The notes below the pieces were generated by a model. That model saw nothing but the letters and a program-made list of their open reading frames with translations, did no database searches and had not been told where the DNA came from. Positions 10,592-63,583 of a stretch of DNA of 64,000 bases are shown here, piece by piece. Every line of letters begins with the position of its first letter. Within the stretch, counting starts at the first letter, position 1. A program made the position numbers and the translations under genes. Source of the DNA: an uncultured Paracoccaceae bacterium (GTDB lineage Bacteria; Pseudomonadota; Alphaproteobacteria; Rhodobacterales; Rhodobacteraceae); contig CANKVU010000005.1 in assembly GCA_947487205.1 (NCBI GenBank), positions 62,001 through 126,000 on the forward strand, written 5' to 3'.

Positions 10592-14811
<4,220 letters not shown>

Positions 14812-14818
14812 GGCGGGT

Positions 14819-14844
14819 GTTCGGCGAATGTTCCTAAAAAGTTC
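14819..14844 (+). promoter_or_regulatory. Triple GTTC LexA operator (two overlapping GTTC-N7-GTTC boxes)
   Basis: GTTC occurs at 14819-14822, 14830-14833 and 14841-14844, each separated by exactly 7 bases. Every neighbouring pair is therefore a perfect alphaproteobacterial SOS box (GTTC-N7-GTTC, established for Rhodobacter and rhizobial LexA). A -35-like TTGATC (14845-14850) abuts the last repeat. The site is 8 bp after the recG stop and 58 bp before a 38-codon ORF, so it most likely controls that ORF. Confidence 0.75.
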
Positions 14845-14901
14845 TTGATCGGGGCAGGTCGATGTGAGAACAAAGTGGCAACGAAACACTGGGAGGCCGC
14901 C

Positions 14902-15018
14902 ATGATCCGCCAATTTCGCCAATCCCTCCGCCGCGGGGAAACGAGCCTTGCCGATTTCGTGGGCTGCGTGGCGCTGACCGTGCTTCTGATCGCGGGGCTC
15001 CACCTGCCGTATCTGTGA
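14902..15018 (+). CDS. 38-residue single-pass membrane protein behind a LexA operator
   Basis: A short ORF with a strong ribosome site (GGAGG at 14892-14896, 5 bp before ATG). The product has an amphipathic, Arg-rich N-terminus (RQFRQSLRRG), a Glu and an Asp at the membrane boundary, then one hydrophobic helix (about residues 19-36, VGCVALTVLLIAG) and ends directly in LPYL. The positive-inside rule puts the N-terminus in the cytoplasm. I do not recognise the family. The upstream SOS box and the terminator at 15132 make it a monocistronic, probably damage-induced transcript; in Caulobacter a 29-residue LexA-controlled membrane protein, SidA, blocks division, so a similar role is an inference from architecture only. 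Confidence 0.6.
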   Translation: MIRQFRQSLRRGETSLADFVGCVALTVLLIAGLHLPYL

Positions 15019-15131
15019 CCGTTTCTGCCTGGGGGTCGATCAGTCCCGGTTCCGAGGCGGCGGCCAATCTGCCGGCCGCCGCCCGCCCTTCGGACGCGCC
15101 TCTGTCCCGATCGGGCCGACCCCGCACCTCT

Positions 15132-15170
15132 CCGCCGCCATCCCCCCGGATGCGCGGCGGATTTTTTATT
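15132..15170 (+). terminator. Rho-independent terminator after the SOS small ORF
   Basis: A GC-rich stem (left arm CCGCCGCCAT from 15132, right arm ATGCGCGGCGG ending 15160, with small bulges) is followed by ATTTTTTATT on the + strand. It closes the transcript starting near 14870, giving an RNA of about 300 nt. The stretch 15019-15131 in between holds no ORF I can support. Confidence 0.7.
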
Positions 15171-62473: not shown

Positions 62474-62488
62474 GTTCCCGAAATGTTC
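62474..62488 (+). promoter_or_regulatory. LexA box (GTTC-N7-GTTC) of the radical SAM gene
   Basis: GTTC at 62474-62477 and 62485-62488, exactly 7 bases apart. It lies between a -35-like TTGTGT (62465-62470) and a -10-like TATTCT (62489-62494), 12 bp before ATG 62501. This is a classical repressor position. Confidence 0.7.
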
Positions 62489-62500
62489 TATTCTGCCTCC

Positions 62501-63583
62501 ATGTCCCGATCCGATCCCCCGCCGCGCCGGCGCCTGCGGGCCCGCGGCACCGAGAGCAACCCCGCGACCCGCCACGACGCCCATGTCCGGGTGCCGGTGG
62601 ACGATGGCTGGGCGGTGGAGGAGGACCTGCCGCTGCTGCGGACCGAGGTGGCGGTGGAGCGGCCCCGCCGGGTGCTGACGCGGAACACCTCGCCCGATAT
62701 CGGCTTCGACCGGTCGATCAATCCCTACCGGGGCTGCGAACACGGGTGCGTCTATTGCTTCGCGCGACCGAGCCACGCCTATCTGGGCCTGTCGCCCGGC
62801 CTCGATTTCGAGACGCGGCTGGTCGCCCGGCCGGAGGCGCCGGCCGTCCTGGACCGCGAATTGCGCGCCCCGGGATACCGGCCCGACGTGATCGCGCTGG
62901 GAACCAACACCGATCCCTACCAGCCGATCGAACGGGAATGGCGGGTCATGCGCGGCCTGCTGGAGGTGCTGCGGGATTTCCGCCATCCGCTGACGATCGC
63001 GACCAAGGGCACGCTCGTCGAGCGGGACGCCGACATCCTGGGCGGGATGGCCGCCGACCGCCTGGCCCGGGTCGGGATCAGCCTCACCACGCTCGACGCG
63101 GATCTGGCGCGGACGATGGAGCCGCGCGCGCCGTCCCCCGCGCGCCGGCTGGCCACGATCGAGCGGCTGGCGCGGGCGGGGATCGAGGTGCGGGCGATGG
63201 TGTCGCCGGTCGTTCCGGGGCTGACCGACGCGGAGATCGAGGCGATCCTGGCCGCGGCCCGCGACGCGGGCGCGGTGGCGGCGAGCTGGGTGATGCTGCG
63301 CCTGCCGTTCGAGGTGGCGGGCCTCTTTCGCCGCTGGCTGGAGGTGCACGCGCCCGGCCGGCGCGACAAGGTCATGGCGCGGATCCGCGAGATGCATGGC
63401 GGGCGGGATTATTCCGCCGAATGGGGGCACCGGATGCGCGGCGAGGGGGTCTTCGCCGAGCTGATCGCGCGCCGGTTCGACATCGCCGCCCGGCGGCTGG
63501 GCCTGGCGGAGGGGCTGCCGCCGCTCCGCCGCGACCTCTTCGCCGTGCCGCTGGGAACGGCCGCGCAGCCGTCGCTGTTCTGA
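62501..63583 (+). CDS. PA0069-family radical SAM protein (SplB-like)
   Basis: Radical SAM enzyme of 360 residues related to the PA0069/Rv2578c group and, distantly, spore photoproduct lyase. The cluster motif is NPYRGCEHGCVYCFARPSH (CxxxCxxC), followed by ALGTNTDPYQPIE, TIATKGTLVERD and VSPVVPGLTDAEIE. ATG 62501 is preferred since ATG 62483 lies inside the LexA box. There is no ribosome site and the predicted transcription start falls near the ATG, so the mRNA may be leaderless. The reaction is unknown; control by LexA points to DNA damage. Confidence 0.9.
   Translation: MSRSDPPPRRRLRARGTESNPATRHDAHVRVPVDDGWAVEEDLPLLRTEVAVERPRRVLTRNTSPDIGFDRSINPYRGCEHGCVYCFARPSHAYLGLSPGLDFETRLVARPEAPAVLDRELRAPGYRPDVIALGTNTDPYQPIEREWRVMRGLLEVLRDFRHPLTIATKGTLVERDADILGGMAADRLARVGISLTTLDADLARTMEPRAPSPARRLATIERLARAGIEVRAMVSPVVPGLTDAEIEAILAAARDAGAVAASWVMLRLPFEVAGLFRRWLEVHAPGRRDKVMARIREMHGGRDYSAEWGHRMRGEGVFAELIARRFDIAARRLGLAEGLPPLRRDLFAVPLGTAAQPSLF

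What the first reader, a model, noticed from the sequence alone, without database searches (positions are those of the whole stretch)
14819..15170. SOS unit: triple LexA operator driving a 38-residue membrane protein
Seen: three GTTC tetramers at exact 11-bp period (14819, 14830, 14841) form two overlapping GTTC-N7-GTTC boxes; 58 bp later a GGAGG-preceded 38-codon ORF encodes an Arg-rich N-terminus plus one membrane helix; a terminator follows at 15132. Known: GTTC-N7-GTTC is the LexA operator in Rhodobacter and rhizobia, and Caulobacter LexA controls SidA, a 29-residue membrane division inhibitor. Inference: this is a damage-induced small membrane protein, possibly a division inhibitor, unlisted because it is too short for normal gene calling.
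Basis: partly seen in the sequence, partly recalled or inferred. Interest (0 to 1): 0.85.

Follow-up and report, generated by a model that had tools for sequence, protein, structure and literature searches.

The report
SOS-controlled microprotein gene behind recG
Behind the DNA-repair gene recG lies a tiny gene for a 38-residue membrane protein under what looks like the bacterial DNA-damage (SOS) switch; most sampled genera of one large bacterial family have it, and it may halt cell division until DNA is repaired, though that is untested.

Summary
A profile of the protein finds it in 347 of 394 sampled genomes of the family (Rhodobacteraceae, inferred); in a class sample one likely chance hit lies outside. 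Of 82 homologous loci inspected, all follow recG and 77 carry an exact GTTC-N7-GTTC; 0 of 28 out-of-family recG genes examined do. Of 15 profile-negative genomes with a recG hit, 10 (by eye) still hold a diverged copy and 5 none.

A third upstream GTTC is common, usually at 10 bp, not 11.

The protein has an amphipathic N-terminus, near-invariant Asp and Gly, an uncharged helix and a Leu-x-Pro end; it matched no Pfam, NCBIfam, PHROG or PDB sequence. SulA was absent from 40 of 40 genomes searched, 24 of them in the family.

Best explanation: a LexA-repressed bitopic microprotein, probably the family's SOS division inhibitor, working like Caulobacter SidA. SOS control and the protein are strongly supported; division inhibition is inference (about 0.5). 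Homology to SidA was not tested.

The parts
12730..14811 (+). recG (ATP-dependent DNA helicase), the upstream neighbour; start inferred from the frame at the end of the preceding ligase ORF
   Evidence: ORF 11902-14811; Pfam DEAD, Helicase_C, RecG_dom3_C on 13000-14808
14819..14822 (+). third, upstream GTTC half-site (11 bp from O1 here; 10 bp in most relatives)
   Evidence: 143 of 186 distinct loci at 10 bp, 5 at 11 bp, 38 at neither
14830..14844 (+). O1, LexA operator GTTC-N7-GTTC (GTTCCTAAAAAGTTC)
   Evidence: exact box in 77 of 82 homologous loci
14845..14850 (+). putative -35 hexamer TTGATC (TTTACA-like in most relatives), directly after O1
   Evidence: 68 loci; promoter function inferred; no sigma-70 match in the scan
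14868..14882 (-). O2, second, inverted, degenerate LexA-like element GAAC-N7-CAAC in the expected -10/start region
   Evidence: GAAC 37-39 bp from O1 start in 72 of 82 loci; 181 of 186 distinct loci with O1 (many of them chosen by a pattern that contains this GAAC); second half exact GAAC in 5 of 71 loci not so chosen and in diverged loci
14892..14896 (+). ribosome binding site GGAGG
   Evidence: a core of 4 or more bases in 174 of 197 homologous loci against 12% at random positions
14902..15018 (+). 38-codon gene for a small single-helix membrane protein
15131..15169 (+). intrinsic terminator (hairpin plus T-tract)
   Evidence: -24.8 kcal/mol, z -5.84 (not found by the consensus scan)

Best explanation
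The unit is an autonomous SOS gene. LexA bound at O1 (over the -35) and at the inverted O2 (over the -10/start) keeps the promoter shut and may also block read-through from recG. After DNA damage RecA triggers LexA cleavage and a 38-residue protein is made. It has a mostly basic, amphipathic N-terminus (cytoplasmic by the positive-inside rule), a near-invariant Asp and Gly at the membrane edge, one uncharged transmembrane helix and a very short Leu-x-Pro end. It most likely delays division by binding a transmembrane part of the septal peptidoglycan machinery (FtsW/FtsI/FtsN), as SidA does in Caulobacter. Shown here: conservation, operators, frame, helix composition. Inferred: LexA binding, induction, topology, target, phenotype, read-through block. 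Rough confidences: real translated protein 0.95; LexA-repressed 0.93; SOS division inhibitor about 0.5; acting on the FtsW complex about 0.4. The figure in this field is for the division-inhibitor statement.
For: Spread: 14 of 14 sampled genomes of the window's genus (its own included) match at E up to 1; 347 of 394 family genomes match the profile. Place and operator: of 82 homologous loci, 82 have the recG end upstream on the same strand and 77 an exact GTTC-N7-GTTC. Control: 0 of 28 out-of-family recG genes examined (30 loci were given for 55 genomes with a hit; 2 of the 30 are in the family) have a direct GTTC or GAAC box within 300 nt. The genome has lexA, with a box about 30 bp before the lexA match on the other strand. 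Protein: Asp in 190 of 191, Gly 187, Pro 178; no K/R/D/E in the helix in 191 of 191. SulA 0 of 40 genomes, 24 of them in the family. Papers, passages seen: SidA is a 29-residue inner-membrane SOS inhibitor acting on FtsW (PMC4211646); a Caulobacter lexA deletion filaments because of sidA (PMC12700426); YneA binds FtsW through its helix, and low-confidence models place SidA, ChiZ and SosA there too (PMC13396833).
Against: No expression, binding or phenotype data. Of 47 profile-negative family genomes 20 were followed: 15 gave a recG end, 5 of these have no such ORF or box, and 4 of those 5 keep lexA, so the gene is dispensable there and no co-loss with LexA is seen. No plausible profile hit outside the family, so homology to SidA has no support. 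pN/pS is below 1 in every bin but 0.94 in the 0.2-0.4 pS bin (156 pairs); the gene is short and synonymous sites largely saturated. The N-terminus is net positive in only 136 of 191. O2's second half is CAAC in 56 of 71 loci, one base off. The O1-O2 spacing is not exclusive: 13 of 32 matches of the bare composite pattern lie elsewhere, 5 of them a recurrent type. The D. shibae section on in-silico LexA sites does not name this gene (PMC6473078, section read; its supplement was not seen).
Confidence: 0.5

Rival explanations
1. A small modulator of another membrane protein that links DNA damage to the CtrA/CckA phosphorelay, gene-transfer-agent release or envelope stress, not to division itself.
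For: In R. capsulatus LexA acts on cckA and gene transfer (as cited in PMC6473078, passages); restriction to one family fits a lineage-specific pathway.
Against: No physical link seen to GTA or CtrA genes: the neighbours are a DNA ligase ORF, recG and a convergent lytic transglycosylase.
Confidence: 0.2
2. A TisB/DinQ-like SOS membrane toxin: the peptide depolarises the inner membrane and drives damaged cells into dormancy.
For: Size, single helix and tight-looking double operator fit a toxic product. DinQ is an SOS-regulated toxic single-transmembrane peptide (PMC3567139, start of abstract in the listing).
Against: The helix carries no charged residue in 191 of 191; TisB's helix has charges (recalled). 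No Rfam RNA at the locus (gathering threshold); no dedicated antisense-RNA search was made.
Confidence: 0.15
3. A damage-induced helper of repair coupled to recG, placed there because the two act together.
For: Position behind recG in 82 of 82 homologous loci inspected.
Against: Own operators and terminator; a membrane helix is an odd helper for RecG; in L259 O1, O2 and ORF stand with no recG found in the 1,413 nt upstream.
Confidence: 0.07
4. The ORF is incidental and the conserved thing is an operator or a small RNA.
For: Parts of the operator region are more conserved than the coding sequence.
Against: Frame, start, RBS and an Asp/Gly/Pro pattern are kept across the family; pN 0.12 against pS 0.37 with the nearest relative.
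Confidence: 0.03

Closest known systems
SidA of Caulobacter crescentus
   Same: LexA-regulated, very small inner-membrane protein (29 residues) of an alphaproteobacterium; GTTC-N7-GTTC operator class (PMC4211646 and PMC12700426, passages)
   Different: Homology was not tested (SidA's sequence was not obtained); the profile has no plausible hit outside the family; here there is an O1+O2 pair, whereas about 97% of Caulobacter SOS promoters carry a single box (PMC12700426, passage)
YneA / SosA / ChiZ (SOS division inhibitors of other phyla)
   Same: Small single-helix proteins induced by DNA damage that block late division steps (PMC13396833, passages)
   Different: YneA and ChiZ carry a LysM domain and SosA an extended region (PMC13396833, passages); this one has only a few residues after the helix
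TisB / DinQ of E. coli
   Same: SOS-regulated single-helix peptides of similar size (DinQ: abstract start; TisB recalled)
   Different: No charged residue in the helix here; no antisense RNA found, though searched only through Rfam
SulA of E. coli
   Same: Would fill the same role if the division hypothesis holds
   Different: SulA acts on FtsZ (PMC4211646, passage); no SulA match in 40 of 40 genomes searched, 24 in the family

Membership tests
Alphaproteobacterial LexA (SOS) regulon | GTTC-N7-GTTC operator at the promoter, conserved among orthologues | tested here: met
   (77 of 82 homologous loci); out-of-family control 0 of 28
Alphaproteobacterial LexA (SOS) regulon | The host encodes LexA | tested here: met
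   (own lexA, over the cut-off; box nearby); 37 of 40 family genomes tried
Alphaproteobacterial LexA (SOS) regulon | RecA-dependent induction by DNA damage; LexA binding | not testable with these tools
   needs RNA measurement and footprint or ChIP
SidA family | Sequence homology to Caulobacter SidA | not tested
   SidA's sequence was not obtained; only indirectly, the profile search of 289 class genomes gave no plausible out-of-family hit
SidA-like SOS division inhibitors (functional class) | Very small protein with a single membrane helix | tested here: met
   by composition only (helix uncharged in 191 of 191); no structure model
SidA-like SOS division inhibitors (functional class) | Overproduction blocks septation; interaction with FtsW/FtsI/FtsN | not testable with these tools
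   needs experiment
TisB/DinQ SOS membrane toxins | Charged, amphipathic membrane helix (feature of TisB, recalled) | tested here: not met
   no D/E/K/R within the helix in 191 of 191
TisB/DinQ SOS membrane toxins | Antisense or trans-acting RNA antitoxin | tested here: inconclusive
   Rfam scan only; an undescribed RNA would be missed
SulA | Pfam SulA domain | tested here: not met
   no Pfam hit for the ORF at E up to 10; SulA in 0 of 40 genomes

The most novel reading that the evidence does not exclude
A family-wide SOS effector of Rhodobacteraceae, not found described in the searches made: the lineage's missing division checkpoint protein, not homologous to SidA, using a near-invariant Asp-x-x-Gly membrane-edge motif to seize a divisome (or other) membrane partner. 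It sits under a double LexA clamp whose inverted O1/O2 pair both represses the promoter and roadblocks recG read-through.
Probability: 0.3. Interest if true: 0.8.

Novelty: new member of a known kind. Interest (0 to 1): 0.62.

Why it matters
What SOS uses to hold division in Rhodobacteraceae did not appear in the listings of ten literature searches (open-licence library only). This locus offers one defined, deletable candidate, found in most sampled genera, with its operator in 77 of 82 loci inspected. If confirmed, it would strengthen the view that tiny membrane proteins acting on septal wall synthesis, rather than FtsZ inhibitors, are a common SOS division brake.

Tried and rejected
Rejected: that the operator is a chance match; that the ORF is spurious; that the triple GTTC at 11 bp is the defining element; that loss of the gene follows loss of lexA (lexA kept in 4 of 5). 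Only partly rejected: that the O1-O2 spacing is a general SOS promoter layout. Of 32 matches of the bare composite in 40 genomes, 19 are this locus (18 at the coordinates of the small ORF; the one in G016 by a RecG-type end upstream) and 13 lie elsewhere, 5 of them a recurrent type whose gene I could not identify.

Led nowhere: Pfam, NCBIfam and PHROG scans of the protein, PDB sequences, Rfam (only a tRNA), structure prediction (not completed). SidA's sequence was not obtained. Searches used: 11 of 12 genome searches, the one genome-contig scan, 10 of 10 paper searches.

Rows dropped before counting: hits L024, L025, L027, L029 and L030 (inside ORFs of 170-930 aa), L093 (inside a 409-aa ORF); from the 87 loci, four repeats (L063, L068, L073, L076) and L138 (inside a 321-aa ORF), leaving 82. 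One search took these 82 plus 116 of the 117 loci (L199 ends too soon): 198, of which 193 are distinct; L129 (no ATG found) and one with too short an ORF were left out of the alignment (196; 191 distinct). Starts were chosen as the ATG giving a length nearest 39 codons. The ten diverged ORFs are not in these sets. Loci were chosen by a pattern that contains O1 and the first half of O2, so they are no independent evidence for these two.

Full report
Observation. GTTC-N7-GTTC is enriched in the genome, 101 against 36 for the reversed control, so a single box means little and conservation is the test. The genome has a lexA gene (match C8:118089-118775) with a box at 118042-118056 on the other strand, about 30 bp before the match. 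Upstream lie a DNA ligase ORF and recG; downstream, convergent, a lytic transglycosylase with SLT_2 and a peptidoglycan-binding domain. With its own terminator the unit looks monocistronic.

Conservation of the frame. With the single protein, 28 of 60 genomes match at E up to 1, including 14 of 14 sampled genomes of the window's genus; five of the 30 loci given were dropped as hits inside long ORFs. With a 24-sequence profile (A1), 347 of 394 family genomes match at E up to 0.01, against 5 of 289 in a class sample, 4 of them in the family and the fifth (E 0.0036) inside a 409-aa ORF. The family is unnamed in the tool. It is Rhodobacteraceae by inference: five operator-to-stop sequences are identical between named records and unnamed family loci (titles seen for three: Marimonas arenosa, Frigidibacter albus, Seohaeicola saemankumensis). 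The 80 titles shown of 117 are Rhodobacterales by name (recalled, not looked up) or uncultured Alphaproteobacteria. The 30 genomes with the weakest matches were fetched on purpose.

Conservation of place and operator. Of 87 loci examined, 83 remain after removing repeats, and 82 after removing one hit inside a long ORF (L138). All 82 have the recG end upstream on the same strand (83-627 nt from the match), and 77 carry an exact GTTC-N7-GTTC. Of the 47 profile-negative family genomes, the 20 listed were followed; 15 gave a recG end. By eye, 10 of these 15 still have a short membrane-type ORF with LexA-type repeats behind recG, 7 with GTTC-N7-GTTC and 3 only with GAAC-N7-GAAC; 5 have nothing. 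Of those 5, lexA is present in 4. Outside the family, 0 of 28 recG genes have a box within 300 nt. The simplest reading is that the unit arose behind recG in this family. In one record (L259) operators and ORF are intact with no recG found in the 1,413 nt upstream.

Promoter anatomy. Aligning 68 loci on O1 shows, in order: a third GTTC 10 bp upstream, O1 (GTTCtcAAAAAGTTC), TTtACa directly after it, about 10 poorly conserved bases, then tGAGAACAAAnnggcAACa. The GAAC lies 37-39 bp from O1's start in 72 of 82 loci. In the 71 of these with a called start, the second half, seven bases on, is CAAC in 56, TAAC in 7, GAAC in 5, AAAC in 2 and CATC in 1. Six of the ten diverged loci have an exact GAAC-N7-GAAC (L141, L142, L150, L151, L152, L153): 36-37 bp from an O1 in L141 and L150, 28 bp in L151, and with no exact O1 left in the other three. 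I read the element as a second, inverted LexA operator, O2, over the -10/start region; a -10/start sequence that resembles a half operator remains possible. The bare composite GTTC-N7-GTTC-N23-GAACA matches 32 times in 40 genomes (24 in the family; 20 genomes with a match, reversed control 1): 19 at this locus and 13 elsewhere, 5 of these a recurrent type. So the spacing is typical of this gene but not exclusive.

The protein. Among 191 distinct aligned copies, Asp is kept in 190, Gly in 187, Leu in 186 and Pro in 178; the helix has no D/E/K/R in any. An RBS core is present in 174 of 197 against 12% at random positions. The N-terminus is amphipathic by mean moment (0.51 against 0.34 shuffled) and net positive in 136 of 191. 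With the nearest relative pN is 0.12 and pS 0.37, but by bins the ratio ranges from 0.28 (6 pairs) to 0.94 (156 pairs), and the gene is too short for a strong test. Pfam, NCBIfam, PHROGs and PDB sequences gave no match at E up to 10. A structure model could not be made.

Mechanism. LexA repression follows from the operators and the known class (GTTC-N7-GTTC in Caulobacter: PMC12700426, passages). The role is inferred. Papers seen in passages report that SOS-induced small single-helix proteins act on the FtsW complex: SidA (PMC4211646) and YneA, with low-confidence models for ChiZ, SosA and SidA (PMC13396833). SulA is absent from 40 of 40 genomes searched, 24 of them in the family. The uncharged helix argues against a TisB-like pore. 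A role in the LexA/CtrA/GTA network remains open (PMC6473078, passages and one section; the section's named LexA targets do not include this gene). I put division inhibition at about 0.5.

Novelty. Ten literature searches, in an open-licence library that lacks most subscription papers, showed no paper on this gene in their listings. It is a new member of a known kind (SOS-controlled single-helix microproteins), with an unusual two-operator layout. SidA membership was not tested.

Noticed in passing
62474-62501: A LexA-type box GTTCCCGAAATGTTC (62474-62488) lies 12 nt before an ATG (62501) of a radical SAM protein (Pfam), so this gene may also be under SOS control.
   Followed up: partly
L272, L296, L297, L300, L301, near position 1501: A second layout, GTTC-N7-GTTC then a TATGAGATCAAAA-like stretch and GAACA at the same spacing, recurs in five genomes away from recG: probably another LexA-controlled gene; the gene was not identified.
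   Followed up: partly
L102 (G000:C33:6395-6895): In the window's genome another GTTC-N7-GTTC box lies just before an ORF with a UvrD-helicase domain.
   Followed up: partly
L142, L152, L153, just after recG: In three diverged genomes an exact GAAC-N7-GAAC is present while no exact GTTC-N7-GTTC remains, so the inverted element can apparently outlive O1.
   Followed up: partly
L259, around position 1413 (oriented): The operator pair and small ORF are intact with no recG found in the 1,413 nt upstream, so the unit can stand apart from recG.
   Followed up: yes
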